Below are positions 10,757 through 24,628 of a stretch of 64,000 nucleotides of DNA, piece after piece. A program made the position numbers and the translations under genes. The DNA comes from Kitasatospora sp. SolWspMP-SS2h. Lineage in GTDB: Bacteria; Actinomycetota; Actinomycetes; Streptomycetales; Streptomycetaceae. Position 1 is the first letter of the stretch. Each line of letters starts with the position of its first letter. The stretch covers positions 124,001 to 188,000 of the forward strand of contig NZ_QLLT01000004.1 in assembly GCF_003259315.1 (NCBI RefSeq). Direction: 5' to 3'. The notes under the pieces are model-generated. The model saw nothing but the letters and a program-made list of their open reading frames with translations, had not been told where the DNA came from and searched no databases.

Positions 10757-11374
10757 GTGGCGACGTACCGTTGTGTGACATCCGGTCTTCCGGCAGCCGC
10801 TGAGCGGAGCAGGGTGGTTGCCGAGGGAGGATGGTGCTTCGTCACCGGCAGCCGAGAGAGTGCAGTTGCGGTCGCTTCGGCGCTGGGCGGCAGGATCGAC
10901 GAAGCCGACCCCCGCGGTTCCTCGCCCGCCTGCTTGGTGAGGACCGGAGCCCACTCCCTCTCGATCACGATGCACGGTGCTGAGTCGATCTCGTTCCGGA
11001 TGGTGCACCGGGGCGTGCGGGGGAGTGGCAAGGTCCAGGTGGATCACCGGAATTGTCACCGCCCTGCTGCTCTCGAAGTAAAGCAGTGCGGCTGTGGCAC
11101 GGGCCTGGCGGAGCAGCGCTCTGCGGCCAGGTCCGGCCACGGCCCGAAGCCCGAGATCAAGATCGCGTTCCGGCTGACCGAGGCGCCCTCGCTCGGGGTG
11201 TTCGAGTTCGCCACCTCGTCGTGGACGCTGGCCGGGACGCTGGAACCCGTACTGCGGGCGTTCGCGGAGGGCCAGGCGTCGGTGCAATGCGAACTCAGGA
11301 TCGAGTCCCACTCCTTCGAGACGTCCGACGGCGTGCAAGTGACCTGCCACGAGCCGGTGCTCGTCCTCGGCTGA
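10757..11374 (+). CDS. Probable recombination directionality factor (phage Gp3-like)
   Basis: This 205-aa protein follows the integrase and has a strong ribosome binding site (GAGGAGG) before GTG 10757. Its order of segments resembles Gp3-like directionality factors of phiC31-type phages: a TGSRESAVAVASALGGRIDE opening, SITMHGAESISFRM, a short Cys cluster (CGCG) near residue 117, IKIAFRLTEAPSLGVFEFAT, SSWTLAG, and a VTCHEPVLVLG end. Gp3 binds the integrase and switches it to excision. The assignment is from remembered family features, not a search; the position next to the integrase supports it. Alternative: an unrelated hypothetical phage protein. Confidence 0.55.
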   Translation: MATYRCVTSGLPAAAERSRVVAEGGWCFVTGSRESAVAVASALGGRIDEADPRGSSPACLVRTGAHSLSITMHGAESISFRMVHRGVRGSGKVQVDHRNCHRPAALEVKQCGCGTGLAEQRSAARSGHGPKPEIKIAFRLTEAPSLGVFEFATSSWTLAGTLEPVLRAFAEGQASVQCELRIESHSFETSDGVQVTCHEPVLVLG

Positions 11375-11483
11375 GCCGTTGGAGCGGGATCACCGCCCGA
11401 CCGGGTGAGCCTGTCAGCCGATCGGACCCGTGGCTGGTGAGCTGACCCGAACGACCTGAGCAGCAGCAGAAGGAGAGGAAGCC

Positions 11484-12200
11484 ATGCCCGCGCCTGGCAC
11501 GTCGTACGGTGACCTTCGAGCCCTGGTGATCAACTGCACGCTGAAGCGATCACCGGAACGGAGCCACACCCAAGGCCTCATCGACATCAGCACGGGAATC
11601 ATGGAACGCCAAGGCGTGTCGGTCGAAGTCCTTCGTGCCGTCGACATCGACATCGCGACCGGCGTGTGGCCGGACATGACGGAGCACGGGTGGGAGAGCG
11701 ACGAATGGCCGGTCATCTACTCGAAGGTGATGGCCGCTGACATCCTTACGCTAGCCGGGTCTGTGTGGCTGGGAGACAACTCTTCCGTCATGAAGCGCGT
11801 CATCGAGCGGCTGTACTCCTGTTCCTCGGTCCTCAACGAGCACGGCCAGTACGCGTACTACGGGCGGGTCGGCGGTTGTCTGATCACCGGGAACGAGGAC
11901 GGCGCGAAGCACTGCGCGATGAACGTGCTGTACAGCCTCCAGCACCTGGGGTACGTCGTCCCGCCGCAGGCCGACGCGGGCTGGGTCGGGCCGGCCGGGC
12001 CGGGGCCGTCGTACCTGGACGAGGGGTCGGGCGGGCCGGAGAACGACTTCACCAACCGGAACACCACGTTCATGACGTGGAACCAGCTGCACCTGGCGCG
12101 GATGCTGAAGGACGCGGGCGGTATCCCAGTGCACGGCAATCAGCGCTCCGAGTGGGACGCGGGCTGCCGCTTCGACTTCGAGAACCCCGAGCACCGGTAG
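11484..12200 (+). CDS. Intact element-borne NAD(P)H:FMN oxidoreductase (replacement copy of the attB gene)
   Basis: The 238-aa flavodoxin-fold oxidoreductase matches both halves of the disrupted chromosomal gene almost without gaps. Shared blocks include NCTLKRSPERSHTQGLID, GRVGGCLITGNEDGAKHC and FMTWNQLHLARMLKDAG. It should bind FMN and use NAD(P)H; the physiological acceptor is unknown. At the insertion point the protein is LAGSVWLGDN against LAGPVWLGDN in the host. The DNA is recoded there (GCCGGGTCTGTGTGG against GCCGGCCCGGTCTGG), so the CCGGTCTG core is absent. ATG 11484 has AAGGAGAGG upstream. It likely restores the lost function and resists self-integration. Confidence 0.93.
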   Translation: MPAPGTSYGDLRALVINCTLKRSPERSHTQGLIDISTGIMERQGVSVEVLRAVDIDIATGVWPDMTEHGWESDEWPVIYSKVMAADILTLAGSVWLGDNSSVMKRVIERLYSCSSVLNEHGQYAYYGRVGGCLITGNEDGAKHCAMNVLYSLQHLGYVVPPQADAGWVGPAGPGPSYLDEGSGGPENDFTNRNTTFMTWNQLHLARMLKDAGGIPVHGNQRSEWDAGCRFDFENPEHR

Positions 12201-12326
12201 GGATCTTCGCTGGACCTGGTGATTTCGGCTGGTGTCGTACGGTCCGCGACTTGAACGCCCTTGTGCTCTACGGCCTGGTTCGATGCGGGTGCTGTTCGAA
12301 TTCGGGGCGCGGCGCCGTTCCTCGGA

Positions 12327-13286
12327 TCAGTGGCGGACGAGTTCGACCTCGGCGTCTATTACCTCCCACCACACCTCTATGTCCCATTCGGTGACCTGTG
12401 GGAGGTGGTCGGAAACCTCCTGCACCTGCGGCATGTTCGGGATGGTTGCGGAGATGAGCGCCCGCATCAGCTCCTCGGCGGCGTAGCCGTGGTCGATCCC
12501 ACCGAGGCCGCCGGGCGGGAGGTCTTCTCCGGGGATCCGCTGACGGGCCTTCTTCGGACCGTCCCAGGTGGTGGGCCCGTCCGCGCCGACCTGCCCGAGC
12601 ACGGTGGCCGCGTACCGGCCGATGTTGACCATGCCGCGGAGGGTCATGAGCCGGTCGGGCACGTCGTCGGGCCGGGTCGTTCCGTCGGGCAGGACGATCG
12701 AGCGGTCCACCACCCATGCCTTGTCCTCGGCCCCGTCGAGGCGGAGCGGGCAGCCCCACACCGGCCAGGAGTTCATGTCGCCCTGGAAGAAGGCGAGCCA
12801 CCGGTCCTTGTACATGTTGGCCAGCAGCCAGCGGATCTGGTGCTCCCGGTCGCCGGGGTCACCGAAGTTCAGGTGGACGCTGGCCACCGAGACCTCGCGC
12901 TTGCTGAGGGCCTTGGTGTGGGGATGGATGCAGCGGAGCTTGGCCGTGGCGGGCCGGTGCCGGACCGCGTTGGTGTAGGGGACCCACTCGGGGTCGGCCT
13001 GGAACAGCTCGGGTGCGAAGAACAGCACGTTCCTCGACCCGGAGCGGAGGTTGGGTGCCTCCACGAAGTCCAGCTGGAGCTGCTGGGCGACCTCGGCGGC
13101 CTGGTCCTCCTGGAGTTCCTGGAGGGTGAGCAGGTGCGGGCGCTCGGCGCCGCGCTCCTGGGCGAACTGACGCAGGTGGTCGATCGCTTGGGGCAGCTTC
13201 CAGCCGTGCTGGATGTTCCAGCCGACGTGGACGAAGGAGCCCATAGCGCCGGCCTCGGGCCTGGCGGTGGTGAGGGTGCTGCTCAT
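12327..13286 (-). CDS. Endonuclease/exonuclease/phosphatase (EEP) fold protein
   Basis: The 319-aa protein shows the EEP superfamily motifs in order: VGWNIQHG (Asn), LTLQELQEDQ (catalytic Glu), VASVHLNFGD, FFQGDMNSWP (GDxN), and EVSDHLPQV (SDH) near the C terminus. EEP enzymes cut phosphodiester or phosphate-ester bonds in DNA, RNA, lipids or inositol phosphates with Mg. There is no signal peptide, so a cytoplasmic nuclease is likely. It lies 98 bp downstream of the lanthipeptide genes on the same strand and could be read through from them. It is convergent with the replacement oxidoreductase gene. Its role in the cluster is unknown. Confidence 0.8.
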   Translation of the reverse strand: MSSTLTTARPEAGAMGSFVHVGWNIQHGWKLPQAIDHLRQFAQERGAERPHLLTLQELQEDQAAEVAQQLQLDFVEAPNLRSGSRNVLFFAPELFQADPEWVPYTNAVRHRPATAKLRCIHPHTKALSKREVSVASVHLNFGDPGDREHQIRWLLANMYKDRWLAFFQGDMNSWPVWGCPLRLDGAEDKAWVVDRSIVLPDGTTRPDDVPDRLMTLRGMVNIGRYAATVLGQVGADGPTTWDGPKKARQRIPGEDLPPGGLGGIDHGYAAEELMRALISATIPNMPQVQEVSDHLPQVTEWDIEVWWEVIDAEVELVRH

Positions 13287-13384
13287 GCGGTTGCCTCTCG
13301 GTGTCGGGTCCTGCTGGAAGGCGCGCCGGGGAGTGCGCCGGACCGGCGGCGGTGCCCGGGTCCGCGGTCGAACGGACGGCCGGG

Positions 13385-14527
13385 TCACGGCCGCGACGGC
13401 GAGAGGGGCTTGGCGGCGGCCTTGGTGATGACGGCGGTGGCCAGGGCGAGGGCGGCGGTGATCCGGTCCTCGTGGTCGGTCGTCAGGGTGGCCGGGCCGC
13501 CGACGCCACACTCGGTGGCGATGGCTGCCAGCCGGTGGCGCTGTTCGGCGGGCAGGCCGTCGGCGAGGCGGTGGCGGGCGAGGTCGCGGGCGCTGTAGCC
13601 CTCGGGTGCGGCCAGGGTCCGGCCGACGGCGGCGACGTACACGCGGGCGGCATCGGGGAGTCGGCCGGCGGCGGTGGCGAGGTCGGCGACGGTCAGGACG
13701 AGCCGGGTGTCGAACACCTCGCTGCCCTGGCGCGGGGTCACGGCGGCGTGGGCGCGGAGCATCGTCTCGGCCTGCTCGGCCGCCGGGTCGCCGTCGAGCA
13801 GCGTGCACGCCACGGTCAGAGCGGCGGCGATGGCGTGCTCCCACGGCTGTTCGGCAGGGGTGTCGCGGGCCAGAGCGCGGGCGAGCGCGGTGCGGCCTTC
13901 GAGGGCCATGGCGACGACGGCGACCTGGCGGCCCTCGAACAGGCGGTCGCTGCGGTCGGTGGACTGTCTGAGGTGGAAGTGCGCCTCGGTCCAGCGCCCG
14001 GCGCGGGCCAGGGCGCGGGCTCCCTCGAAGACCTGGATGTCGGTGAGCCACTGGTGGAGGTCGGCACGGTCGGCGCTGCTGGCGGTCAGCCCGGCGAGGG
14101 GGATGATCAGGCCGCCGGGGAGGTTGGCGTCGTCGTTCTCGGCGACGGCGCGCAGCAGCTCGTCCAGGATCGCAAGTGCCGGGATGCCGTTGCCCGCCCG
14201 CAGTTCGAGGTGGGCGAGGTTGACGAGGGGTTCGAAGACCAGGCGGGCCAGGTAGACGGTCAGCGGCCGGTGGGCGAGGTAGAAGCCGGCGTGGTTGAGG
14301 CACAGCACGCGGGCCAGGCCGGGCAGGCCGCGGTCGGAGGCGAGGAGCGCGGCGAGGTTGTGGACGCTGGTGGCGGTGGCCGGGTTCCCGGTGTCAGCGG
14401 CCTGCCGGGCGAGGTCGGTGAGCTGCTGCACCCGCTGCTCCAGCGGGGCGGCGAGGGCGTGCCTGCGGGGGACGAGCGGGAGGCGGGCGAGGGCGTCGCC
14501 GAGCGGGCCGGTGAGCTGGGCGCTCAT
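13385..14527 (-). CDS. Helical repeat protein of the FxLD lanthipeptide cluster
   Basis: The 380-aa, Ala/Leu-rich, all-helical protein appears built of TPR-like repeats (for example ATATSVHNLAALLASDRGL, LGNLAHLEL-type helices and AGRLPDAARVYVAAVG). It has no catalytic motif that I can name. Its ATG overlaps the stop of the preceding bacteriocin-type gene (ATGA at 14524-14527), so it belongs to the lanthipeptide operon. It may scaffold the modification enzymes or act as a regulator. The function is not assigned. Confidence 0.7.
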   Translation of the reverse strand: MSAQLTGPLGDALARLPLVPRRHALAAPLEQRVQQLTDLARQAADTGNPATATSVHNLAALLASDRGLPGLARVLCLNHAGFYLAHRPLTVYLARLVFEPLVNLAHLELRAGNGIPALAILDELLRAVAENDDANLPGGLIIPLAGLTASSADRADLHQWLTDIQVFEGARALARAGRWTEAHFHLRQSTDRSDRLFEGRQVAVVAMALEGRTALARALARDTPAEQPWEHAIAAALTVACTLLDGDPAAEQAETMLRAHAAVTPRQGSEVFDTRLVLTVADLATAAGRLPDAARVYVAAVGRTLAAPEGYSARDLARHRLADGLPAEQRHRLAAIATECGVGGPATLTTDHEDRITAALALATAVITKAAAKPLSPSRP

Positions 14528-15372
14528 CGCAGCACCGCCTCGTTGGCGTCGACGAGGTCCAGGACCGCGCCCGCGGCGGCCGAGGCTAGGGCGGCTTGCT
14601 GCTGGTGGGGCAGGCCGAGGCGGTTGGCGGCGAACAGTTGGTGGTGGGCGAGGACCGCGCGCTGCCCCCGCCACAGCTGGCCCTCGTCGGCCAGTGCCCG
14701 CAGGCTCAGGCCGTAGGCGGCGAACTCGGCGAACCAGGGCGCGGCGTGTGCGAGTCGGCCTTCCAGGAGAGCGGAGCCGGGGGTGGTGTCGGCCCGGAGC
14801 AGGGTACGGGCGGCGTCGACCAGGCGGCGGTCCGGGACGGCCAGCCCAGGGCCGTCTGCGGGCCGGTTCTCGGCGACCTGCGCCCAGGTGTCGCCGATCT
14901 CGTACCAGTCTAGTCCGGCGCCGCGCATCGCGGCCGTGCCGAGCAGCAGCCACAGCTCGGCCCGCTGGTCGGGCAGTTTGCCGCGGTGGACGGCTCCGAG
15001 GTAGGTGAGGGTGTGGCGGCTGTCCTGGTGGAAGAGGCGGTGGGCGGCGGGCAGCGCGGCGGCTCCGCCGAAGGCGTAGGTCTCCGGCTCGTAGAGGGCC
15101 GGGGTCCAGTCGCTGATCATGCCCGCCTCGCGGCACATGTCCAGGGCCTCGTTGACCGCGGTGGCGACCGCGTGCAGGGCGCGGGTGGCGGTCTCCCGGT
15201 AGCGCAGCCGCCATCGCTCGCCCTTGCGCAGAAAGTGCCAGGCGTCCAGCAGCCCCTGGTCCTCCAGGGATATCAGGGCGGGGCCGAGGAGCCGGACGGC
15301 GTGCTCCTCGGGGGTGTCGGTGGCCAGGTGCAGGTGGACCTGCGTCCAGGCGCGGTCGCCGGTGGCGAGCAC
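14524..15372 (-). CDS. Thiopeptide-type bacteriocin biosynthesis protein (stand-alone SpaB_C-like domain)
   Basis: The 282-aa protein begins VLATGDRAWTQVHLHLATDT and continues RWRLRYRETA. This is the opening of the thiopeptide-type bacteriocin biosynthesis domain related to the C-terminal elimination domain of LanB dehydratases. That domain removes glutamate from glutamylated Ser/Thr to give Dha/Dhb. The main LanB of this cluster already has such a domain, so this copy is a second, separate one. GTG 15372 has AAAGGAGAA upstream. It follows lanC by 17 bp and overlaps the next gene, so all are one operon. Confidence 0.78.
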   Translation of the reverse strand: MLATGDRAWTQVHLHLATDTPEEHAVRLLGPALISLEDQGLLDAWHFLRKGERWRLRYRETATRALHAVATAVNEALDMCREAGMISDWTPALYEPETYAFGGAAALPAAHRLFHQDSRHTLTYLGAVHRGKLPDQRAELWLLLGTAAMRGAGLDWYEIGDTWAQVAENRPADGPGLAVPDRRLVDAARTLLRADTTPGSALLEGRLAHAAPWFAEFAAYGLSLRALADEGQLWRGQRAVLAHHQLFAANRLGLPHQQQAALASAAAGAVLDLVDANEAVLR

Positions 15373-15389
15373 CAGAGTTCTCCTTTGGA

Positions 15390-16547
15390 TCAGACGAGCA
15401 GCAGCAGGGCGTCCCAGCCGGTACCGGGGTGGTCGGCGGCCAGGGAGCAGCGGGCGAGGCCGATGCCGGCGGTGCCTTCGAACAGGCCCTGGCCGGTGGC
15501 GTCGGTGCCGGGGTCGGGCAGGCCGCTGGCGGCGGCGAGGATCCGCACCGCGGTGGTGTGGTCGGTGCGCTCGGCGAAGCGCTTGGCAGCCAGGCGTACC
15601 CCCGCGGTGCCGTGGCAGACGGTGCCGTCGGTCAGGCTGTGGACTTGGTCGGGGTCTTCGAGAGCGTCGAGGAAGGCGGCTTCGGCGGTGCGGGCGCGGT
15701 CGGTGTCGCCGGTGGCGCGGGCGGCGTGGTGCAGGGCGGTGGCGATGCCGGGGGTGCCGTAGCACCAGGACGGGCGCAGCGGCTTCGACTGCCGGGTGCG
15801 GCCCTGGTCGGCTTCGGCGGCGGTCAGTGCCTCGGGCCACCAGGCGCGGGCGGCGCCGTTCTGCTGCCAGGCGTCCAGCCAGTCGAGGATGCGCCCGATC
15901 GCCTCCAGCTGGCCCGGGACGCGGGTGCCGTCAAGGTAGGTGAGGGCCAGCAGGGCAAGCGGGCCGGGGATGCCGTGCGCCATACCGAAGTTGCCGTGCC
16001 CGCCCGGGTAGCGGTCGTCCTGCTCGCCGCTGGGCGCGAGGTGCGTCCACCAGCCCGAACGCCCCTGCACCGGCCCGGTCAGCCGCACCAGGTAGGTCAG
16101 CACTTCCCTCAGCAGCTCCCGGCTGCCCCAGACCCGCAGGTGCGCGCCGAGACCGGTCAGCCCGCCCAGGAGGTCGAACTCCCCGAAGGCGGGGCGCACT
16201 CCGCAGTCGATGCGGCGGTGGGCGGCCGCCAGGCGCTTGCGGACGACGTCCTCCACCGCGGCGTTCAGGCCCATGCGCGGCTGCTGGTAGGCACGCGGCC
16301 CGTGGCTCGCTGCCAGGTGAAGGATGTGCGCGACGGCGGGCGCGCCGTAGAACACGGAGGCCCCGGCGAAGGAGTTCACAGGCTGGCTCACGCACGCGGT
16401 GATCCACTCGTGGGCGGTGTCCCAGCTTCCCCGGCCGGTGGCGGCGCGCTCGACGTGCAGCAGCGCGGTGGCGAGGCCGCCCTTGGCCAGGGACTGGCCC
16501 CACTGGGCGGAGGCCTCGGTGGGCGGTGTGAGCAGTTCGGCGGTCAT
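15390..16547 (-). CDS. Lanthionine synthetase C family protein (cyclase)
   Basis: The 385-aa LanC-type protein has the alpha-barrel motifs GGHGNFGMAHGIPGPLALL (about 195-213), WCYGTPG (about 280) and CHGTAG (about 325). The Cys of WCYG and the Cys-His of CHGTAG are the three zinc ligands that activate the peptide cysteine thiol for addition to Dha/Dhb. It would close the (methyl)lanthionine rings of the FxLD precursor in the cytoplasm. Its ATG overlaps the stop of the dehydratase gene (16544-16547), giving translational coupling. Confidence 0.9.
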   Translation of the reverse strand: MTAELLTPPTEASAQWGQSLAKGGLATALLHVERAATGRGSWDTAHEWITACVSQPVNSFAGASVFYGAPAVAHILHLAASHGPRAYQQPRMGLNAAVEDVVRKRLAAAHRRIDCGVRPAFGEFDLLGGLTGLGAHLRVWGSRELLREVLTYLVRLTGPVQGRSGWWTHLAPSGEQDDRYPGGHGNFGMAHGIPGPLALLALTYLDGTRVPGQLEAIGRILDWLDAWQQNGAARAWWPEALTAAEADQGRTRQSKPLRPSWCYGTPGIATALHHAARATGDTDRARTAEAAFLDALEDPDQVHSLTDGTVCHGTAGVRLAAKRFAERTDHTTAVRILAAASGLPDPGTDATGQGLFEGTAGIGLARCSLAADHPGTGWDALLLLV

Positions 16548-19500
16548 GCCGGTTGTCCTTCCTCGGCGCGAGCGGTTCGGGCGGTGAGGGTGAGCGCGGC
16601 AGCGCGGGCCAGGCGGTGGCAGGTGCGCTCGCTGGCCGGGTTGAGGCCCACGGCGCGGGCGTGGTGCAGGTGCAGCAGCGAGCCGAGGACGTCGGCGGGC
16701 TCCAACTCCCCGTCCCGGCCGAGCGCCCTGCGGTAGTCGGCCAGCTTCTTGGCCCGCACCCCCCACACCAGGGCGAGGAGGCGGCCCTCCTCGGTGAGTT
16801 CCAACCGGTCCGGGCGATCGGCGAGTTCGGCGGCCAGCCGCGACGCGGCGCGCGGCAGCGCGATCTCGCTGCGCCTGGGCACCCGCTCCAGCAGCCAGGC
16901 GTGGCCGGCCTCCCTGCCCAGCAGCGCGGTGGCGAGGTCGAGCATGCTCGCCGCCGTCACGGTGGCCGGATCGGTGGAGGTGGCGCGCTGGTAGGCGAGT
17001 TGGGCCAGCACCGCTCGGGAATCGAGGGAGAAGAACTCCTCCGCCACCCGCAGCGCCGCCCCGCGCCCGTACCGGCCGGCCTCCGGCAGGTAGGTGTCGA
17101 TCTCCAGCCGCGTGAGCAGGCCCTCCTCCCGCATCTGCTGGGCCCACTTGCCGATGCGCTCGGCGGCCAGCGACCACGCGGCGACGGCGGAGACGGGGAT
17201 GCGCAGGCGCACGTGCGGTTCGGGGTCGGTGTGCCGCAGGAACCACCACTGCGGCGGCACCACCCAGCCAGCAGCCAACCCCGGTACTCGAGAGAGGAGT
17301 TCGTCGGCGCGGCGCGGGTTGCCGAACAGGCGGGCCGACAGCCACCCGGACGCGCCCGGTAGGTGCCCGGACCGGACGGTGACCGGCCTCCCGGGGCGCG
17401 GGCGAGCGGCGGGCAGCGGCGGGCGGGTGGAGTGCAACTGCACGGTGACCTCGTGGGCCCGGCCGCACCACCGGTTGTTGACTGCCCGCGGGGCCTCGAT
17501 CAGGACCGCGGTCGGCTCCCGCAGCAGGTGATCGCGCAGCAGCACCAGGTGCTCCGGCAGGCACAGGTCCAGCGGCAGCCGAAGGTTGTTCTGCGACAGG
17601 TGCACCGTCGCCGGGACGTTGTAGCGGGCGATCCACTCGCTCGCCGCCGCCTGCCACTCCTCCCAGTCGGCGTCCTTGCCGGGCAGGTCGGCGGCGGGCA
17701 GGTGCCAGCGCGCCGGCGACAGCACCACCTCCCCGTAGCGCATCCGCGGCAGGTAGGGCAGCCGCCCGGCCGCGCCCCAGTTGAACGTGGTCAGCCACGG
17801 GGTGTGGGCGTGGGTGATCTCGCACAGGAACCGCACCAGCGGGTCGGTGTTCGCGCGGAAGTCCACCGCGTTGAGCGCCCGCACCTCCACCGGACGGCGG
17901 TCGGAGAGCCGCACCAGCCACATCCGCCGCTCGTCCGCGCACACCCCTAAGTCCTCCAGCCGCAGCACCGATCCGATCTGCGGGAACTCGCCCAACGCCA
18001 GCAGCGGCAGCAGAGCCGGGGCCCGGGAGACGTTCTCCGCGCGGGCGTACAGCGGGGGCGCGGAGACCTGCACCACCAGCGCGTCGGCCCGCAGCGGCGG
18101 CGCGGCGGCGATCGCCGCCTCCAGCTCGCGGCGGCGCTCGGGCTCCAGCAGGTACAGGAACCGGCCCGCGGTCGTGCCCGCCCCACGCGGCACCGCCTGC
18201 ACCACCGGGGCAAACTGCGCAGCCCCGTAGGTGAACAGCCCTACACCGTAGGCCGAAAGCCGCACCGTCAGCTCGGCATGCGGCTGCACCGCCCCGTCGG
18301 GCACCGGGTCCGGAGCGAGGCGCTCCAGCAGCGGGCCCTGGAGGTCGACCTGGTCCAGCCGCTCGACAACGGCCATCTGAGCCAGCGCCAGAAGCTGGGC
18401 GTCGCGCCGCCCGAACTTCGGCTGCACGTCGGGCAGCACCGAGTCCCGGTAGCGGGCGGGGAATCCCATCCCGGTGTCCGGGTTCACCAGCTCGACCACC
18501 GGCACCACCGCGCCCGGCCCGAACCGCTCGGCGAAGCGGCGGTGGTAGTCCACCCACGCCGGGTGCCCATTCGGGAACGGCGACAGCCGGGTCAGCACCT
18601 CGGCCGCGCCGGCCACCAGCGACGCCACCCGCCGGGGCAGCGCCGCGGGACCGGCGTCCAGGTGCAGGTCCACCATCAGCGGCGACGGCCCGTCCGGGAC
18701 CCCGCCCGGCTGGCGGGTCAGCTGCCGGGTCAACCCGGTCCGCAGCGTCCGCTGGGCCGTCGGGTCGTCCAGCTCGTTGTGCCGGGTCAGCTGCCCGCGC
18801 ACCGTTCGAAGGGTGTTCCAGGTGGCTTCGGCGGCGGGGACCTGGTCGAGGCCGGTGGTGCGGGCGATGGCGAACAGGTGGCCGAGCGGGTCGGTCGCGG
18901 TCGTCGGCAGCCGCAGGATGCTGATCAGGAAGCCCTGGCGCACCAGCTCGCCGAGCATCGCGCGCACCGTGTCCGCCGGGACGGCCGGGAAGCGGTCGGC
19001 GAGTTCGCCGAGCGTCACCGACAGCGGGCCGTCGGCCGCCTCCAGCACGGCCAGCACCGGGGCGGTGGCGCGGACGGACACCTCCGCCGGTTCTCCGTCC
19101 TGGAGGTTGCGGGTCATCGGCAGGACGACGCGGCCACCGCGGAGCACCCGCAGCTGGTTGGCCGTCACCGGCAGCAGATCGCCGACAGCTTCCTCCAACT
19201 CCCGCACCACGGAGGCCAGCCAGCGCGCGTCGGGCCGCGCCACCGCCCGGGACGCACCCCAGCGGGGCGCGGCGGCGGACTCGCCGAAGGGCACCGCGGT
19301 CACCCCGGCGAACAGCCCGAAGGGCGTCGCCCGCTGCTGGCGCAGCGCGTACTGCATCACCGAGGCCGTCAGCCGGCGTAGCCGCCGCCGGGGTACGTGG
19401 TCGAAGTTGAAGACCACCTCGCGCACCCGGGCGGCCAGCTGCGGGCCTGCGGCGATCTCGACCGCCGCGGCGAAGTCGGCGTCCGCCCAGACGTGCTGGA

Positions 19501-19624
19501 GCCAAGCGCGCCAGTTCGCGGTGGCGTGGGGGTCGGTGTCGGCGAGGTCGGGCCACCAGGACGGCCCGGCTCCGGCCGGGCGGGCGGCGGCCCGTAACAG
19601 GGCCGGTCCTGCGACGGCGTACAC
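16544..19624 (-). CDS. Class I lantibiotic dehydratase (LanB)
   Basis: The 1026-aa protein has an N-terminal glutamylation domain: FNFDHVPRRRLRRLTASVMQ, TPFGLFAGVTAVPFGE near residue 110, and GMGFPARYRDSVLP. A C-terminal elimination domain has WWFLRHTDPEPHVRLRI and LEIDTYLPEAGRYGRG. LanB enzymes use glutamyl-tRNA to glutamylate Ser/Thr and then eliminate it to form dehydroamino acids. GTG 19624 is chosen because GAGG lies 9 bp upstream and VYAVAGPALLRAA matches the usual N terminus. It is separated from the precursor gene by a hairpin. Confidence 0.92.
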   Translation of the reverse strand: MYAVAGPALLRAAARPAGAGPSWWPDLADTDPHATANWRAWLQHVWADADFAAAVEIAAGPQLAARVREVVFNFDHVPRRRLRRLTASVMQYALRQQRATPFGLFAGVTAVPFGESAAAPRWGASRAVARPDARWLASVVRELEEAVGDLLPVTANQLRVLRGGRVVLPMTRNLQDGEPAEVSVRATAPVLAVLEAADGPLSVTLGELADRFPAVPADTVRAMLGELVRQGFLISILRLPTTATDPLGHLFAIARTTGLDQVPAAEATWNTLRTVRGQLTRHNELDDPTAQRTLRTGLTRQLTRQPGGVPDGPSPLMVDLHLDAGPAALPRRVASLVAGAAEVLTRLSPFPNGHPAWVDYHRRFAERFGPGAVVPVVELVNPDTGMGFPARYRDSVLPDVQPKFGRRDAQLLALAQMAVVERLDQVDLQGPLLERLAPDPVPDGAVQPHAELTVRLSAYGVGLFTYGAAQFAPVVQAVPRGAGTTAGRFLYLLEPERRRELEAAIAAAPPLRADALVVQVSAPPLYARAENVSRAPALLPLLALGEFPQIGSVLRLEDLGVCADERRMWLVRLSDRRPVEVRALNAVDFRANTDPLVRFLCEITHAHTPWLTTFNWGAAGRLPYLPRMRYGEVVLSPARWHLPAADLPGKDADWEEWQAAASEWIARYNVPATVHLSQNNLRLPLDLCLPEHLVLLRDHLLREPTAVLIEAPRAVNNRWCGRAHEVTVQLHSTRPPLPAARPRPGRPVTVRSGHLPGASGWLSARLFGNPRRADELLSRVPGLAAGWVVPPQWWFLRHTDPEPHVRLRIPVSAVAAWSLAAERIGKWAQQMREEGLLTRLEIDTYLPEAGRYGRGAALRVAEEFFSLDSRAVLAQLAYQRATSTDPATVTAASMLDLATALLGREAGHAWLLERVPRRSEIALPRAASRLAAELADRPDRLELTEEGRLLALVWGVRAKKLADYRRALGRDGELEPADVLGSLLHLHHARAVGLNPASERTCHRLARAAALTLTARTARAEEGQPA

Positions 19625-19673
19625 GGGTATTCGCCTCGATTCCGGGAGATTTCGGGAGGTTTCAGAAACGCCG

Positions 19674-19714
19674 GGGCCCGGCGTGCGGCGGCTTGACGAC
19701 CGCACGCCGGGCCC
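19674..19714 (-). terminator. Attenuating hairpin between precursor and dehydratase genes
   Basis: Arms 19674-19688 (GGGCCCGGCGTGCGG) and 19700-19714 are perfectly complementary over 15 bp with an 11-nt loop. It lies 23 bp after the precursor stop and 50 bp before the lanB start on the same strand. Such a partial terminator typically lets the short precursor mRNA outnumber the enzyme mRNA. Confidence 0.75.
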
Positions 19715-19736
19715 GGTCACACGGGGAGAGGAGCGG

Positions 19737-19901
19737 TCAGACGTTGCCGCCGAACGAGGCGCAGGCGGTGCCCGAGCAGGTGCTGCCGCAGCCGTCGTCG
19801 GTGGAGCGCAGCAGCGCGGCCACCGGGTCGGCGCCCTCGACGATCGTCACGTCGAGCTCGAAGTCGCTCGCGGCGGCGGTGCCGGTGATGGTGGTGCTCA
19901 T
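19737..19901 (-). CDS. FxLD family lanthipeptide precursor
   Basis: A 54-aa peptide has leader MSTTITGTAAASDFELDVTI, with the FxLD motif as FELD at residues 14-17. A Cys/Ser/Thr-rich C-terminal core follows, with CGSTCSGTACASF holding three Cys and several Ser/Thr. The leader FxLD motif recruits LanB. The core would be dehydrated and cyclised to up to three thioether rings. A strong ribosome binding site (AAGGAGGAAG) precedes ATG 19901. It is very short and easily missed, but it lies first among the modification genes and just after the FxLD methyltransferase, as expected. The mature target is unknown. Confidence 0.92.
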   Translation of the reverse strand: MSTTITGTAAASDFELDVTIVEGADPVAALLRSTDDGCGSTCSGTACASFGGNV

Positions 19902-19944
19902 GGTGCTTCCTCCTTGAGTCGGTGGTGCAGGACCTGGCCGCGGA

Positions 19945-21177
19945 CTACGGCCAGGAGATCGTGAGCCGGACGTGGGTCTTGTCGATGACCAGCCCGTCCG
20001 GAAGCTGGTCGTTGGGGATGCCGATCGGCTGGGCGGTGAAGACCGGGCCGTCGCCGGTGCGGTGCTCGCGGTCCCACTTGCGCACCTCGGTGTTGATCAG
20101 GGCGGCCAGGGGCCCCCCTTCGGGGCCGAAGCCGTGCGCGCCGAACTCGAACTCCGCCGGGTCTTCGCTGATCCTGCGCAGCGCGAGGTAGGCGAGGCTG
20201 TCGCCCTCCACGATCACCGGGCACGCCATCCGGTTCGCCGGGGCGACCGTCTTGGTGTCCAGCTCGGGGTCCACGGACATCAGGCCGAAGCCGGGCAGCG
20301 AGGACGCCAGCCACAGGTACAGGGAGTCGAAGGGCTCCTGGTTGGCGATCGTCACCCCGCTCCACCACTCCGCGCGGGGCGTCTCCAGCACGCCGCCCAG
20401 GCGGCTGGTGTCCGGGCGCTCCAGCTCGTCGAAGCGCAGCCCGACCTCCTTCGTGCCGCGTGGCAGCACCAGGAACTCGTCGTGCGCGTCCGCGCCTTGG
20501 ATCTTGACGAACCCGGAGACAGTCGCGGACACGCTCACCAGCCGCTCGCCCTCCCGGCGGAAGGTGATCGAGCGGGTCAGCCCGTGCATCCGCAGCGGCA
20601 CGGTGATCGTCCCGCCCTCGACCAGAGCGCCAGTCCACGCCGGCGGCAGGTCCCACGCCCCCACCGTCACGACGATCCGGTCGAACGGGCCGCCCTCCAC
20701 CTGCCCGGAGCCGTCCGCCAGCACCACCCGCACCCGCTCGTACCCGGCCTCCGCGAGGTACTTCTCCGCACGCTCGGTGACGAACGGGTCGATGTCGACC
20801 GTCACCACCTCGCCTGCCGGGCCGACGAGTTCGGCAATCAGCGCCGCGTTGTAACCACCCGACCCGACCTCCAGCACCCGCATCCCCGGCCGCACGTCCG
20901 CCTGCTCCAGCATCTGCGCCTGGATCCGCGCGGCCGACACCGAACTGACCGCCAGCCCGTACTCGTTCCGCTTGGTCACCAGCGCCCGCTCGGGCTCGTA
21001 CGCCTCCGCCAACGCCGCCTCTGGGGCGAACACGTGCCGGGGCACGGCCAGCAGCGCCTCCGCGACAGCGGCCGAGCGCACCGAGCCCGCTGCCCGTAGC
21101 GCCTCGACCATCGCCACACGCGGCGCCTCGTCCCTGTCCGGCAACGACCGGCCGATGGAATCTGCCAAGGTGGACAT
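19945..21177 (-). CDS. Methyltransferase of the FxLD system (protein L-isoaspartyl methyltransferase-like)
   Basis: The 410-aa protein has a PCMT-type SAM-binding domain: LLAVPRHVFAPEAALAEAYE, VLEVGSGGYNAALIAELVG (motif I, about residues 105-123), and VVTVDIDPFVTERAEKYL. A roughly 190-aa C-terminal extension follows that is specific to methyltransferases linked to FxLD lanthipeptides. Relatives methylate an aspartate in the peptide and may lead to aspartimide formation. ATG 21177 has GAGGAG upstream. It is the first gene of the minus-strand biosynthetic operon, 43 bp before the precursor. Confidence 0.9.
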   Translation of the reverse strand: MSTLADSIGRSLPDRDEAPRVAMVEALRAAGSVRSAAVAEALLAVPRHVFAPEAALAEAYEPERALVTKRNEYGLAVSSVSAARIQAQMLEQADVRPGMRVLEVGSGGYNAALIAELVGPAGEVVTVDIDPFVTERAEKYLAEAGYERVRVVLADGSGQVEGGPFDRIVVTVGAWDLPPAWTGALVEGGTITVPLRMHGLTRSITFRREGERLVSVSATVSGFVKIQGADAHDEFLVLPRGTKEVGLRFDELERPDTSRLGGVLETPRAEWWSGVTIANQEPFDSLYLWLASSLPGFGLMSVDPELDTKTVAPANRMACPVIVEGDSLAYLALRRISEDPAEFEFGAHGFGPEGGPLAALINTEVRKWDREHRTGDGPVFTAQPIGIPNDQLPDGLVIDKTHVRLTISWP

Positions 21178-21355
21178 CGTTCTCCTCTTGATCTGCCGCA
21201 TGGGTGCGGCACCGTTCCGGAGCGGGACATGGCCACGTCCCAACTCCCTTTGCGGAAAAGTCATCAGCGCGTGCCCGGAGCAGCACACCGCAGCGCCAGG
21301 CCGCCGTCGCCGAGCGATGCGAACACCAGGCGACCGCCCTCCGAGGCGCGCCCAC

Positions 21356-21790
21356 TCAAGCGGCCTCCCCGACACCCGAGTGCTGCGGCTGCCCCGACAG
21401 CCGGGCCCACACGGCCTTCGCGCCGAGATCGACCGTCACGCCCCAGTCATCGGACAGATCGGCAACCAGCAGAAGCCCCTGCCCGTCCACGCGCACACCG
21501 GCGGGGCGCGGACACGGTCGGAGTTCGGACCGGTTGTCGCGGACCTCCAACCAGCAGTCACCGCCGACCTCCTGGAGCCGCACGGGCACGACCTCGCCGT
21601 CACGGCAGGCGTGGCGGATGGCGTTGGTGACCAACTCCGAGCAGATCAGGACCATGTCGTCGATGCGCTCCGGAGCCCACCCCCACCCCAGGAGGGTCCG
21701 CCGGACAGCGCCACGGGCCAGTCGGGCCGATGCCGGTGTCGCCGGAAACTCCTGCTCCCACAGCCGGAGCCCCTGTACTGTCACGTCCAC
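21356..21790 (-). CDS. HATPase_c_2 ATP-binding protein (anti-sigma kinase-like)
   Basis: The 144-aa protein has a single GHKL ATPase domain: ELVTNAIRHACRDGEVV (N box, Glu/Asn) near residue 60 and DGQGLLLVADLSDDWGV (G box) near 105. Streptomyces uses many such short ATP-binding proteins beside helix-turn-helix regulators, as anti-sigma or protein kinase-like switches. It is divergent from the XRE/TPR regulator and just upstream of the FxLD methyltransferase. The likely role is control of the lanthipeptide cluster. GTG 21790 starts it. Confidence 0.82.
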   Translation of the reverse strand: MDVTVQGLRLWEQEFPATPASARLARGAVRRTLLGWGWAPERIDDMVLICSELVTNAIRHACRDGEVVPVRLQEVGGDCWLEVRDNRSELRPCPRPAGVRVDGQGLLLVADLSDDWGVTVDLGAKAVWARLSGQPQHSGVGEAA

Positions 21791-21936
21791 GCCCGCTCCC
21801 TCCGCCGTCTCCGGTCGCTACCTCACGAACCGCACGGTTGTCCCGGCAGTTGGTGTTCGGACGGTGCCGCCCGCTTGCTCAAGACAACCGTGGTTGGCGA
21901 CCGGGAGTAAGGTGTTGGCCACTCCCAGCGGTTTAA

Positions 21937-21949
21937 CCCGTTTAACGGG
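21937..21949. promoter_or_regulatory. Operator candidate before the XRE/TPR regulator gene
   Basis: CCCGTTTAACGGG is a perfect 13-bp palindrome around a central T. A second GTTTAAC lies just upstream at 21931-21937. It sits 15 bp before the regulator start, so occupancy would repress it. Autoregulation is plausible. Confidence 0.5.
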
Positions 21950-21964
21950 AAGTCAGGGGACGTG

Positions 21965-23356
21965 ATGGCGAAGGAAGTTCGGGTCAACGAGCGCCTGCAG
22001 CAGGCCATCAGGGAATCCCGGATGACGTACGATCGCCTGGCCCTGGAGCTGGGCATCGTCGCAGGTCGACACGGTGACGACGCCCGCCCGGGCAAGTCGT
22101 TGATCAGCCACTGGGTGCGCTACAGCGTGGTGCCGTCGGGGGACATGCCGTCCTACCTCGCCGCCGTGCTGTCCCGCCGGCTCGGGCGGACCGTCACCCC
22201 GGCCGACCTTGGCCTGGCCGAAGAGGTGAGCGATCTTCGGGAGTGGGGCTTGGATACGCTGAGCGTCCTGGCCGATCTCCGACGAATCGACGTGGACGAC
22301 GTGGAAGTGGATCGCAGCACCGCCCTCCAGCTGATGGCCTACTCCGTCGGCGCGCTCGCACTTCCCGCCGAGAGCTTGTGGGAGTCGATGGCGCGCACGG
22401 GCGAGGCACGCGGACGAGCCGGTGGCCGACGGGTCGGTGAAGCGGACGTCGAGGCGGTCCGCGACATGACCGGCCTGTTCTCCCAGGTCGACCAGCGACG
22501 CGGCGGCGGCCACGCCCGCACCGCCGTGGTGCAGTACCTCACCAGCGACGTCGCACGATTCTTGAAGGGCGCCTTCGCCTCGGAGCGGACGCGTCGGCAG
22601 ATGTTCTCCGCCGCGGCCGAACTCGCCTACGTGGCAGGCTGGATGGCCTTCGACAGCGCCGACCACGCCGCAGCCCAGACCTACTTCGGGCAGGCGGTCC
22701 GGTTGGCGGCCGAGGCCGACGACCCGGCGATGGCCGGCCACGTCCTGCGGGCGATGGCCCACCAGGCCCTCGACCTCGGGCACCCGAAGCAGGCGCTCGA
22801 CCTCGCTGCGGCGTCCATCAGCGGAGACCGGTACGCACTCGCCTGCCCGCGCGAACGCGCGCTGCTCGGGGTGATCCACGCCCGGGGCCTGGCGGCGACC
22901 GGCCGGCACACGGCCGCCACCGGCGCCCTGCTCCAGGCCCAGCGCGACCTCGCCGCCGCGGCACTGGGCGACGACGAACCGGCCCGGGTGTTCTTCTTCG
23001 GCGAGGCGAGCCTGGCGCACGAAACCGCCTCCGCCCTGCGCGACATAGGCGATCTCGCCGGTGCGGTGAAGGAGTTCCGACACAGCGTCGAGACCCGCAA
23101 GGCCAGCTCCTTCGCCCGGACGCACGCCGTCACCCTCGGCTACCTGGGTGCCGTCCACGTCCGGCTCAAGAACATCGAGGAAGCCTGCACCGTCTGGTCG
23201 GACGCCCTGGACGCCATGGAGCCCGTCCGGTCCGGGCGGACCCGGCAGACCGCCACGCACATGCGCACCGCCCTCTCGCCGTTCCGGCAGCGCGGCATCC
23301 GCAGCATCGACCGGGTCGACAGCCGGGCGGCCGCCTACCTGGAAGCCACCGCGTGA
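21965..23356 (+). CDS. XRE-like helix-turn-helix regulator with TPR domain
   Basis: The 463-aa protein has an N-terminal helix-turn-helix (VNERLQQAIRESRMTYDRLA to SLISHWVRYSVVPSG, residues about 6-60). A long helical TPR-like part follows with DHAAAQTYFGQAVRLAAEAD, GHPKQALDLAAASISG and GDLAGAVKEFRHSVETRKAS. Such proteins read a small signal or peptide through the TPR part and switch neighbouring clusters. It is divergent from the HATPase and FxLD genes with a palindrome at its promoter, so it is the likely regulator. ATG 21965 (or GTG 21962) follows AGGGGA. It reads toward the trmO-like gene 44 bp downstream. Confidence 0.83.
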   Translation: MAKEVRVNERLQQAIRESRMTYDRLALELGIVAGRHGDDARPGKSLISHWVRYSVVPSGDMPSYLAAVLSRRLGRTVTPADLGLAEEVSDLREWGLDTLSVLADLRRIDVDDVEVDRSTALQLMAYSVGALALPAESLWESMARTGEARGRAGGRRVGEADVEAVRDMTGLFSQVDQRRGGGHARTAVVQYLTSDVARFLKGAFASERTRRQMFSAAAELAYVAGWMAFDSADHAAAQTYFGQAVRLAAEADDPAMAGHVLRAMAHQALDLGHPKQALDLAAASISGDRYALACPRERALLGVIHARGLAATGRHTAATGALLQAQRDLAAAALGDDEPARVFFFGEASLAHETASALRDIGDLAGAVKEFRHSVETRKASSFARTHAVTLGYLGAVHVRLKNIEEACTVWSDALDAMEPVRSGRTRQTATHMRTALSPFRQRGIRSIDRVDSRAAAYLEATA

Positions 23357-23400
23357 ACCGACGTACCGTCACCACCCCGACCGCAGGAGGAGAACCGATC

Positions 23401-23904
23401 ATGACCGACCGCGAGGTGTTCGAAGTCGAGGCCCTCGGCCACGTGGTGGGCGGCCGCACCGAGCCCACCGACGACTTCTGGGGCGGCACCCGGGCGATCA
23501 TCCGACTCGACGGCACCCGCTTCACCGCCGACGCCACCAAGGGGCTCGAGGACTTCTCCCACCTGGAGGTCGTCTTCCGCTTCCACCTCACCGACCCCAC
23601 CGACCTCAACCTCGGTGCCCGCCGCCCGCGCGACAACCCCGACTGGCCCGAGGTCGGCATCTTCGGCCACCGCAACATGCGCCGCCTGAACTGGCTCGGC
23701 GTCTCGCGCTGCCGACTCCTCAAGGTCGACGGCCTGGACCTCCACGTCGAGGACCTCGACGCCGTCGACGGCACCCCGATCCTCGACGTGAAGCCCTGGT
23801 TCGTCGACTTCGGTCCCCGCGGTGAGATCCACCAGGCACAGTGGACCACCGACATGCTGGGCGAGTACTTCGCCCCGGGCGAGGACGGCCGGAGCGCCGA
23901 GTAG
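23401..23904 (+). CDS. TrmO/TsaA-like SAM-dependent methyltransferase (UPF0066)
   Basis: The 167-aa protein has the TsaA/TrmO beta-barrel signatures: an ALGHVVGGRTEPTDD start, KGLEDFSHLEVVFRFH near residue 55, and DLDAVDGTPILDVKPW near 120. TrmO methylates N6 of t6A37 in tRNAs. The usual RSPFRPNPIGLS segment is replaced by RNMRRLNWLGVS, so the substrate may differ. ATG 23401 is preceded by AGGAGGAGAACC, a strong ribosome binding site. It probably shares a transcript with the regulator. A terminator follows. Confidence 0.8.
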   Translation: MTDREVFEVEALGHVVGGRTEPTDDFWGGTRAIIRLDGTRFTADATKGLEDFSHLEVVFRFHLTDPTDLNLGARRPRDNPDWPEVGIFGHRNMRRLNWLGVSRCRLLKVDGLDLHVEDLDAVDGTPILDVKPWFVDFGPRGEIHQAQWTTDMLGEYFAPGEDGRSAE

Positions 23905-23949
23905 CCGAGCGGTTAACTTCCCTCCGCGGAAGCCGAATCCTAAAGGGGA

Positions 23950-23987
23950 CGTCCGAAGCGGCCTGCTGGGCGGCCCCACTTCGGACG
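23950..23987. terminator. Terminator between trmO-like and PAP2-like genes
   Basis: CGTCCGAAG (23950-23958) and CTTCGGACG (23979-23987) pair, with an inner GGCC/GGCC extension. It separates two convergent genes. Confidence 0.7.
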
Positions 23988-24010
23988 CCCCGGGTGAGGG
24001 CGCCCGATGG

Positions 24011-24628
24011 TCAGCGCAGGAGGCCGAAGACCAGGGCCGTGACGCTGCCGAGGGCGGTGCCGGCCAGGATCTGCGCGAGGGTGTGGGCCTTGAGGACCAT
24101 GCGGGACCAGCCGATCGCCGCGGCGCCGAGCGTGGTGAGCAGCAGCCAGGGGCCGAGGGCGAGCACGAGGATCATGACGGTGCCGCCGGCGACGCTGTTG
24201 TGAAGAGAGATCTGCCAGCCGGTGGTGACGAGGAGGCTGGAGACCAGCCCCACGAGCATCGCGACGACCAACGCGGACACGTCGGACGGGGCGCCGAGGG
24301 CGTACAGCAGGATGATGCCGGTGGCGACTGACACCAGGCTGAGCACCATCGGCAGGAGTCGCTGGCGGCGGACGCGGATGTGCCTGTCGGTGAGACCGCC
24401 GCGTTTCACACCGAGCGCGATGATGCTTATCGGGACGACGCCGCAGAAGAGCGCGGCCAGCAGCCCCCAGCCGAGGCCCGACCAGGAGCGGGTGCTGTGC
24501 CAGCCGATCAGCAGCAGGAGCGCGATCACGAGGTTGGCAGGGGCAAGGACGTCTGTGACGACCCGCGCGGCCTTCTGGCGAAGTGTGCTGCCGGCGAAGG
24601 CGGGCGGAACGGGTGGTTCGAACGTCAC
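24011..24628 (-). CDS. PAP2-superfamily-like membrane protein with degenerate catalytic motif
   Basis: The 205-aa protein has about six hydrophobic segments, including APANLVIALLLLIGW, LLAALFCGVVPISIIALGV and MILVLALGPWLLLTTLG. It ends in the PAP2-type helix SRMVLKAHTLAQILAGTALG. In active PAP2 enzymes this is SRxxxxxHxxxD; here the His is kept but the Asp is Gln. The KX6RP motif is not evident, so lipid phosphatase activity is doubtful. GTG 24628 is preceded by GGAG. It is cargo of unclear benefit. Confidence 0.72.
   Translation of the reverse strand: MTFEPPVPPAFAGSTLRQKAARVVTDVLAPANLVIALLLLIGWHSTRSWSGLGWGLLAALFCGVVPISIIALGVKRGGLTDRHIRVRRQRLLPMVLSLVSVATGIILLYALGAPSDVSALVVAMLVGLVSSLLVTTGWQISLHNSVAGGTVMILVLALGPWLLLTTLGAAAIGWSRMVLKAHTLAQILAGTALGSVTALVFGLLR

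What the first reader, a model, noticed from the sequence alone, without database searches (positions are those of the whole stretch)
13385..21790. FxLD-type class I lanthipeptide cluster travelling on a phage-defence element
Precursor, LanB, LanC, extra SpaB_C-like protein, FxLD methyltransferase, helical protein and an HATPase/XRE pair are all present, but there is no obvious exporter or leader protease. Inside an element full of anti-phage genes, the product could act within the cell or against phage rather than as an exported antibiotic. I recall that lanthipeptides with anti-phage activity have been reported in Streptomyces, which makes this worth testing.
Basis: partly seen in the sequence, partly recalled or inferred. 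Interest (0 to 1): 0.75.

Follow-up and report, generated by a model that had tools for sequence, protein, structure and literature searches.

The report
Lanthipeptide cluster on mobile defence element
A soil bacterium carries, on an inserted piece of DNA packed with virus-defence genes, a small gene set that should make a chemically modified peptide of a kind already reported to protect related bacteria from viruses from inside the cell; whether this one does so is untested.

Summary
All named genes are present: TPR-like protein 13385-14527, standalone SpaB_C 14524-15372, LanC 15390-16547, LanB 16544-19720, FxLD precursor 19737-19901, FxLD methyltransferase 19945-21177, HATPase 21356-21790; the XRE (NsdA-family) gene lies just outside, 21962-23356. 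No exporter or protease family was seen to recur beside 129 related loci (a crude check). The cluster is a class I LanSA-type lanthipeptide ('lanthimiditide'). The 'travelling' claim is strengthened: it lies in a 54.6-kb insertion (about 8985-63587) that splits an FMN-reductase gene, with inverted-repeat ends, a serine recombinase at the left end, and an uninterrupted gene in a relative. The insertion also holds restriction-, McrBC- and helicase-type defence genes. Window-type clusters occur on Streptomyces plasmids, two near type I-E CRISPR-Cas. The anti-phage idea is already in print as 'lanthiphages' (a review section and citing passages seen; primary paper not held). The gene set matches a cluster I take as an orthologue of lanthiphage_Sco, but the window lies in another LanB clade, with methyltransferase and SpaB_C unfused. 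Most likely an intracellular anti-phage lanthipeptide (0.55): a new member of a known kind. Association with defence genes across the genus is weak (3 of 30 other loci).

The parts
8985..63587 (.). Integrative element (about 54.6 kb) inserted in an FMN-reductase gene
   Evidence: Core CCGGTCTG at 8977-8984 and 63584-63591; 16-bp CAGAGTGTTCCGCCGG inverted at the two ends (8987-9002 minus, 63572-63587 plus); gene uninterrupted in G009 (C1:4413319-4414029); joined window flanks align across the junction at 92% over 769 columns
9027..10613 (+). Serine recombinase frame (Resolvase + Recombinase domains) at the left end; open frame given, first ATG about 9054
   Evidence: PF07508, PF00239
11484..12200 (+). 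Intact FMN reductase copy carried by the element, next to the lan cluster
   Evidence: PF03358; 444-bp part repeated at 63587-64030, 89%
12327..13286 (-). Endonuclease/exonuclease/phosphatase-like protein, accessory
   Evidence: No Pfam match; plasmid relatives H40, H41 annotated as EEP family; 3 of 14 genus matches lie beside an FxLD cluster: window, G009, and a C-terminal piece in G042
13385..14527 (-). TPR-like helical protein, conserved cluster member
   Evidence: Homologues passing a length filter in 59 of 80 named loci; model pLDDT 94.8; best structural matches are TPR solenoids
14524..15372 (-). Standalone SpaB_C / LanB elimination-domain protein
   Evidence: TIGR03891 171.7 bits; model Z 20.9 to MadB, 18.1 to PbtD
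15390..16547 (-). LanC cyclase
   Evidence: PF05147; WCYGTPG and CHG motifs align to a solved LanC-like protein, 8byk
16544..19720 (-). Full-length LanB dehydratase
   Evidence: PF04738, PF14028; 222.6 bits to MibB 5ehk
19737..19901 (-). FxLD precursor peptide, core with TDDGC
   Evidence: TIGR04363 57.5 bits; sole match in the genome
19945..21177 (-). LanSA-type (FxLD) aspartate O-methyltransferase
   Evidence: TIGR04364 505.6 bits
21356..21790 (-). HATPase (RsbW-like) regulator
   Evidence: PF13581; a like family in the flanks of 62 of 129 loci
21962..23356 (+). NsdA-family TPR-like regulator, divergent
   Evidence: NF053720 379.1 bits; an XRE-type family in the flanks of 79 of 129 loci, 81 of 87 copies upstream (family joined by single linkage, not profile-checked)
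23392..23904 (+). TrmO-domain protein beside the regulator
   Evidence: PF01980; same TrmO-XRE neighbours in L134, L155, L172
28490..29383 (-). Partial tyrosine-integrase-like ORF inside the element
   Evidence: PF22022, PF13102, PF14659, all under their cut-offs
29452..32775 (+). AAA helicase with PLD domain (defence-type)
   Evidence: PF13086, PF13087, PF13091; PADLOC MkoA 131.6 bits
34772..57064 (+). Defence-type run: kinase, SNF2/DrmD-like, IIG-like methylase, DruE-like helicase, UvrD-like, McrB-like, McrC
   Evidence: PADLOC PDLC03611 828.9 bits, DruE 317.1, DrmD 262.7; PF10117 196.9 bits
57117..59285 (-). TcmP and DUF5131 pair
   Evidence: TIGR04474 174.9 bits; PF07505 325.3 bits
59305..63546 (-). 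UvrD-like helicase protein
   Evidence: PF00580 37.6 bits

Best explanation
The cluster makes a class I lanthipeptide that stays in the cell and blocks phage, and it is one of several defence cargoes of a serine-recombinase integrative element. Proposed path: the NsdA-family/HATPase pair controls expression; LanB dehydrates Ser/Thr of the core STDDGCGSTCSGTACASFGGNV, LanC closes up to three thioether rings, then the LanSA-type methyltransferase esterifies an Asp of TDDGC to give an aspartimide or isoaspartate; the standalone SpaB_C adds a further, unknown step; the TPR-like protein probably binds precursor, product or target. The finished peptide, with no dedicated export, would interfere with the phage programme, as reported for lanthiphages (late phage transcription). 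Shown here: genes, families, element and its ends, conserved order. Inferred: chemistry, intracellular site, anti-phage effect, roles of SpaB_C and TPR-like protein.
For: Same gene set (precursor, LanB, LanC, SpaB_C, FxLD methyltransferase, TPR-like protein) as a conservon-linked cluster, L095, with 43- and 59-aa precursors, matching what is published of the S. coelicolor lan cluster named lanthiphage_Sco. Lanthiphages are described as LanBC class I clusters of Actinomycetota in defence islands, active inside the cell. Window: one insertion holds the cluster and the defence genes. No exporter or peptidase family was seen among the commonest flank families of 129 loci; 4 of 1575 flank ORFs carry an ABC-ATPase motif pair. 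Plasmids: 7 of 12 regions read (of 39 records with a hit) hold LanB and LanC; 3 of those 7 show an annotated defence system in the stretch, fxlM plus or minus 18 kb (type I-E CRISPR-Cas, type I restriction). L184 has a window-type cluster and a TcmP/DUF5131 pair like the window's.
Against: No activity is shown. The window LanB is 39% identical to that of L095 and lies in another clade, with unfused methyltransferase and SpaB_C. S. coelicolor itself was not in hand; the two precursors of L095 are not 97% identical to each other, as the 2010 paper says of SCO6931/6932, and a CvnD-like gene stands beside FxLD-type clusters in 10 loci, not only this one. In the genus, N6_Mtase lies within 40 kb of 3 of 30 other FxLD loci (0.51 expected, P 0.015, one of three families tested, uncorrected), C5 methylase and McrBC of 0 of 30. 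8 of 129 loci match any window defence protein, mostly weakly. 36 of 1575 flank ORFs, in 32 loci, hold an HExxH motif and were not looked at further, so a metalloprotease in some loci is not excluded.
Confidence: 0.55

Rival explanations
1. Intracellular or contact signal: the lanthipeptide is a ligand for TPR-type proteins (the NsdA-family regulator and the TPR-like cluster protein) and steers development or secondary metabolism, with no direct anti-phage role.
For: Two TPR-type proteins belong to the unit: the regulator (NF053720, 'TPR-like'; an XRE-type family in 79 of 129 loci) and the 13385-14527 protein, whose model resembles LGN and also the peptide receptors NprR and Rap.
Against: TPR solenoids resemble one another, so Z about 14 may show only a common arrangement (note); Pfam TPR matches of the regulator are under their cut-offs. 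Signalling does not explain cargo shared with defence genes or the published lanthiphage phenotype.
Confidence: 0.17
2. Conventional exported lantibiotic: leader removal and export are done by housekeeping proteases and pumps elsewhere in the genome; the defence genes are only co-passengers.
For: Class III actinobacterial clusters usually lack a protease (section read). The mature product of the studied LanSA lanthipeptide (S. olivaceus) was unknown in 2020.
Against: No exporter or immunity family was seen to recur across 129 loci; reported lanthiphages show no obvious antibiotic activity and only intracellular ones were found active (review section).
Confidence: 0.13
3. Selfish or decaying cargo: the cluster persists by riding the element and is silent or broken in function.
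For: Remnants of the TPR-like gene lie at the same FMN site in G011 and G009; the precursor family is patchy, 135 of 394 family genomes.
Against: The cluster frames in the window are open and 81-89% identical at protein level to the G009 and G042 copies, so function seems kept.
Confidence: 0.1

Closest known systems
Lanthiphages (Shomar et al., bioRxiv 10.1101/2024.06.26.600839; journal doi 10.1016/j.chom.2026.06.017), e.g. lanthiphage_Sco beside cvn8 of S. coelicolor
   Same: Class I LanBC cluster of an actinomycete, in a defence island, no exporter in the cluster; same six-gene set as L095, which I take as an orthologue of lanthiphage_Sco
   Different: Unfused methyltransferase and SpaB_C, methyltransferase first; other LanB clade; on a serine-recombinase element; activity untested. 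Primary paper not held; known here only through a review section and passages of citing papers
LanSA lanthipeptides / lanthimiditides (olv cluster, Acedo et al. 2019; Walker et al. 2020 families I 1-4; Lee et al. TxDGC motif)
   Same: FxLD precursor, TxDGC core, LanB, LanC, PIMT-like methyltransferase, extra elimination-domain protein
   Different: No product chemistry known for the window; in what I saw, that work treats structure and mining, not phage defence
Thiopeptide [4+2] cyclases (TbtD, PbtD)
   Same: Fold of the standalone SpaB_C protein (Z about 17.5-18)
   Different: Closer to LanB elimination domains (Z 19-21); no pyridine chemistry expected
Serine-integrase integrative elements of actinomycetes (recalled)
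   Same: Recombinase at one end, short core, dyad att halves, split target gene
   Different: No transfer genes seen among the ORFs scanned; the recombinase is not found in the loci fetched around other FxLD clusters

Membership tests
FxLD / LanSA class I lanthipeptide (lanthimiditide) | FxLD precursor with TxDGC core | tested here: met
   TIGR04363 57.5 bits; FELD leader, TDDGC core; TxDGC as given in PMC10787088
FxLD / LanSA class I lanthipeptide (lanthimiditide) | Full LanB and LanC with zinc-site motifs | tested here: met
   PF04738, PF14028, PF05147; WCYG and CHG aligned to 8byk; that these residues bind zinc is recalled
FxLD / LanSA class I lanthipeptide (lanthimiditide) | PIMT-like methyltransferase with C-terminal extension | tested here: met
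   TIGR04364 505.6 bits over residues 20-409; PF01135 covers only 22-215
FxLD / LanSA class I lanthipeptide (lanthimiditide) | Product with thioether rings and aspartimide or isoAsp | not testable with these tools
   Needs mass spectrometry
Lanthiphage | LanBC-type class I cluster in an actinomycete | tested here: met
   definition as given in PMC12715929
Lanthiphage | Located in a defence island | tested here: met
   one 54.6-kb insertion holds both
Lanthiphage | Same gene set as lanthiphage_Sco | tested here: inconclusive
   Met against the proxy L095; S. coelicolor sequence itself not in hand
Lanthiphage | Grouping with the lanthiphage_Sco proxy in the LanB tree (not known to be defining) | tested here: not met
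   Proxy sits in the 87-row clade without separate-type rows (support 99); window outside it
Lanthiphage | Protects against phage; acts inside the cell | not testable with these tools
   Needs experiment
Serine-recombinase integrative element | Recombinase gene at one end; direct core and dyad att halves; split target gene | tested here: met
Serine-recombinase integrative element | Uninterrupted target in a relative | tested here: met
   G009 FMN reductase frame open across the point; G011, same species, has other DNA inserted at the same point
Serine-recombinase integrative element | Excision and transfer | not testable with these tools
   Needs PCR for the circle or reads

The most novel reading that the evidence does not exclude
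The peptide is an immune cofactor rather than an antibiotic: it never leaves the cell, carries an electrophilic aspartimide at the TDDGC site, and is held by the conserved TPR-like protein, which presents it to or senses a phage target; the unfused, methyltransferase-first clusters on plasmids and integrative elements are a second, transmissible branch of lanthiphages.
Probability: 0.12. Interest if true: 0.82.

Novelty: new member of a known kind. Interest (0 to 1): 0.5.

Why it matters
If active, it would show that peptide-based phage defence moves between bacteria as a package with restriction-type systems, and that the lanthiphage function extends beyond the fused SpaB_C-methyltransferase clade. 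It also gives a small (about 9 kb) operon with open frames and a matched uninterrupted site for testing what the methyltransferase, the extra SpaB_C and the TPR-like protein do.

Tried and rejected
Viral copies: no relative of the precursor or of the EEP-like gene in viral contigs, by single-sequence scans that find close relatives only; no SpaB_C relative in phages by tblastn. EEP-like protein as a core part: rejected, 11 of 70 genomes have it, 3 of 14 matches beside an FxLD cluster; phmmer gave no usable solved relative (best E 0.36). Broad defence association in the genus: three families tested, weak; the C5 list was cut by the tool, its nearest listed hits were 45 and 46 kb away; many contigs are too short to show 40 kb on both sides. 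One general carrier element: no relative of the recombinase in the loci fetched around other FxLD clusters, though these reach only about 10 kb out. SpaB_C as a second copy of the same eliminase: doubtful. In 13 of 13 standalone proteins the RYG motif of LanB (window RYGR, MibB and MadB RYGG) reads [AV]FGG, and the His before RLR is absent; that these residues serve elimination is recalled. Pfam and NCBIfam gave nothing for the TPR-like protein, and Foldseek no match at E <= 0.001. The 46-bp FMN 3'-end repeat was first taken as the att site; the sequence at the junctions points instead to the CCGGTCTG site inside the gene. Five of 12 plasmid regions read with an fxlM hit show no LanB beside it and were left out of the cluster count. 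From the LanB tree three of 130 candidate rows (under 800 aa; L043, L110, L111 are missing from it) were dropped by the script.
Full report
What is there. On the minus strand from 21,790 to 12,327 lie a HATPase, an FxLD methyltransferase, a 54-aa FxLD precursor, LanB, LanC, a standalone SpaB_C protein, a helical protein and an endonuclease/exonuclease/phosphatase-like gene; a divergent NsdA-family regulator and a TrmO-domain gene follow on the plus strand to 23,904. Family matches: TIGR04363 57.5 bits, TIGR04364 505.6, TIGR03891 172.5 (LanB) and 171.7 (standalone), NF053720 379.1, all above their curated cut-offs; Pfam. The genus is Kitasatospora by inference: G008 contig 1 has the length of the K. 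cheerisanensis record NZ_KK853997.1 and an identical LanB row.

Conserved unit. The precursor family occurs in 29 of 70 genomes of the genus, not in the second genome of the same species, G011, and in 135 of 394 of the family. I compared 129 loci: 29 of the 30 other genus loci (one on a 6.7-kb contig was not fetched that way, but its named twin L181 is in the next set), 20 from the wider family chosen partly for tandem precursors, and the 80 named loci that one search kept of at least 494; some loci occur twice, and the LanB tree has 127 rows, 120 different. The usual order is regulator, HATPase, (methyltransferase), precursor, LanB, LanC, SpaB_C, (methyltransferase), helical protein, not each present everywhere. 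SpaB_C and methyltransferase are one ORF in 84 of 129, separate in 30 (window type), and one of them is lacking in 15, some at contig ends. In the LanB tree the fused type falls in one clade of 87 rows (support 99) with no separate-type row; the window groups with the G009 and G042 copies (100), then G058, then G026. The tree is a quick one, three short rows were dropped, and its output warns of long rows.

Regulators and export. Among 1575 flank ORFs called by a simple GC-frame script, the two commonest families are an XRE-type regulator (79 of 129 loci; 81 of 87 copies upstream) and a HATPase (62 of 129; 64 of 66 upstream); the next family is in 20 (sign tests). Families were joined by single linkage and named from one sequence each. 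Among the 28 printed I saw no transporter or peptidase family. An ABC-ATPase motif pair is in 4 of 1575 ORFs, all within 5 kb; an HExxH motif is in 36 ORFs of 32 loci and was not followed. MFS pumps would be missed. On plasmids, MFS and ABC genes appear in regions that lack LanB (MFS and a phosphate ABC system in 119).

Helical protein and SpaB_C. The 13,385-14,527 protein models at mean pLDDT 94.8 from 42 sequences. Foldseek's best match is MalT domain III (E 1.4e-3; none at E <= 0.001), the next ones LGN-type TPR; VIA-align gives LGN 4wnd Z 14.2 (rmsd 6.0, 262 aligned) and the peptide receptor NprR 5dbk Z 14.2 (rmsd 6.8, 264 aligned), with Rap proteins between about 11.5 and 13. It is a TPR-like solenoid; the call's own note says such scores may reflect only a common arrangement, so binding of a peptide is a guess. 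The SpaB_C protein models at 91.3 from 13 sequences: MadB Z 20.9 (rmsd 3.5, 262 aligned), MibB 20.3, NisB 19.3, PbtD 18.1, TbtD 17.7. In all 13 aligned standalone proteins the RYG motif of LanB and the His of H-x-R-L-R are replaced, so a reaction other than glutamate elimination is possible, as Walker et al. suggested for such proteins (PMC7268733, two sections read).

The element. BLAST against G011 (same species) and G009 shows core genome left of 8,985 and right of about 63,547. Whole-genome searches used only window 1-20,000 and the 20 kb right of the window; the full window was compared with the site regions of the two genomes only. There, apart from FMN-reductase stretches and short TPR-gene or other fragments, nothing between the ends aligned under the filters used. 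G009 has an FMN-reductase frame open across the junction, matching residues 6-238 of the window's copy; in the window the gene is cut after about codon 94, and its 3' part resumes near 63,587. The ends share CCGGTCTG, and the adjoining 16 bases CAGAGTGTTCCGCCGG occur as an inverted pair at 8,987-9,002 and 63,572-63,587, the form expected of a serine-integrase attP (that expectation is recalled). A serine recombinase frame begins within about 70 bases of the left end. The element carries its own FMN-reductase copy (11,484-12,200), which may make good the damage. G011 has the same right end at the same point but other DNA inside, including N6-methylase fragments at 1,086,273-1,087,135, and two fragments of the TPR-like gene just beyond; G009 has a TPR-gene end near an FMN copy and its intact lan cluster elsewhere, at C1:1,199,454. 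So the site looks like a hotspot that has held related clusters before.

Defence cargo. Right of the lan cluster, after an IstB-type ORF and a partial integrase ORF, lie a PLD-helicase, a kinase, SNF2/DrmD-like, IIG-like methylase, DruE-like, UvrD-like, McrB-like and McrC genes, a TcmP/DUF5131 pair and a second UvrD-like gene. I do not claim a named complete system; PADLOC matches are single-protein scores. The window has no PF02384 match at the threshold.

Does the link recur? Plasmids: 39 of 72,556 records have a methyltransferase relative at E <= 1e-50. Of these I read 12 regions, chosen by me, not at random: 7 show LanB and LanC (5 window-type; 2 fused), and 3 of the 7 show an annotated defence system in the stretch: type I-E CRISPR-Cas 2.5 and 6.6 kb after window-type clusters of S. 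globosus and S. angustmyceticus and type I restriction about 12 kb from a fused one on pM92. The gene tables of that collection are incomplete, so this is a lower bound. Chromosomes of the genus: N6_Mtase within 40 kb of 3 of 30 other loci (G060 35 kb, G008 26, G069 24; 0.51 expected under a uniform null, P 0.015, not corrected for three families; accessory regions are not uniform), C5 methylase 0 of 30 in a capped list, McrBC 0 of 30. Homologues of the window's own defence proteins: 8 of 129 loci, of which only L184 (DUF5131 75%, plus TcmP) is strong. I read this as a real but minority association, in line with the 8.8% given for lanthipeptide clusters in the review PMC12360287.

What is known. 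The review PMC12360287 (section 2.1.8 read) reports intracellular anti-phage lanthipeptides of Streptomyces, late-gene inhibition and GNAT escape mutants. PMC12715929 (abstract and passages) calls lanthiphages LanBC class I clusters found solely in Actinomycetota. Ten loci have such a GTPase gene; the eight of them in the tree all lie in the fused clade. Aspartimide chemistry: PMC13001092 and PMC10787088 (passages). The primary paper is not held, so whether it includes window-type clusters is open.

Verdict. Ordinary as a cluster type, good as an example: a lanthiphage-like operon with open frames and well-placed element ends. Interest 0.5.

Noticed in passing
window 34772-57064: Long plus-strand run of kinase, SNF2, IIG-like methylase, DruE-like helicase, UvrD-like, McrB-like and McrC genes; may be one composite defence operon.
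   Followed up: partly
L225 (S. globosus plasmid) and L231 (S. angustmyceticus plasmid): Type I-E CRISPR-Cas genes lie 2.5 and 6.6 kb after a window-type FxLD cluster on two different plasmids.
   Followed up: partly
L225, L227, and a 10-locus flank family (e.g. L045): A GNAT acetyltransferase gene (annotated in L225 and L227; in L045 my reading of the sequence) sits next to the XRE regulator upstream of FxLD genes; escape phages of lanthiphages are reported to carry GNAT mutations, so this host gene deserves a look.
   Followed up: no
L228, L232, L233, L234: Plasmid regions with a 2.3-kb gene annotated fxlM but no LanB, instead with PIMT or other methyltransferase, phosphotransferase and NUDIX genes, often GNAT and M15 peptidase: apparently another conserved cluster.
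   Followed up: no
L194 (G011) 5566-7858: Two fragments of the TPR-like gene beyond the FMN 3' part, between 46-bp repeats about 2.2 kb apart: perhaps the remnant of an earlier lan cluster at the hotspot.
   Followed up: partly
L094 3848-14649: A cluster with three tandem precursors and three FxLD-type methyltransferase genes, one fused to SpaB_C.
   Followed up: no
window 23392-23904: TrmO-domain gene directly after the NsdA-family regulator; TrmO and XRE hits are neighbours also in L134, L155 and L172.
   Followed up: no
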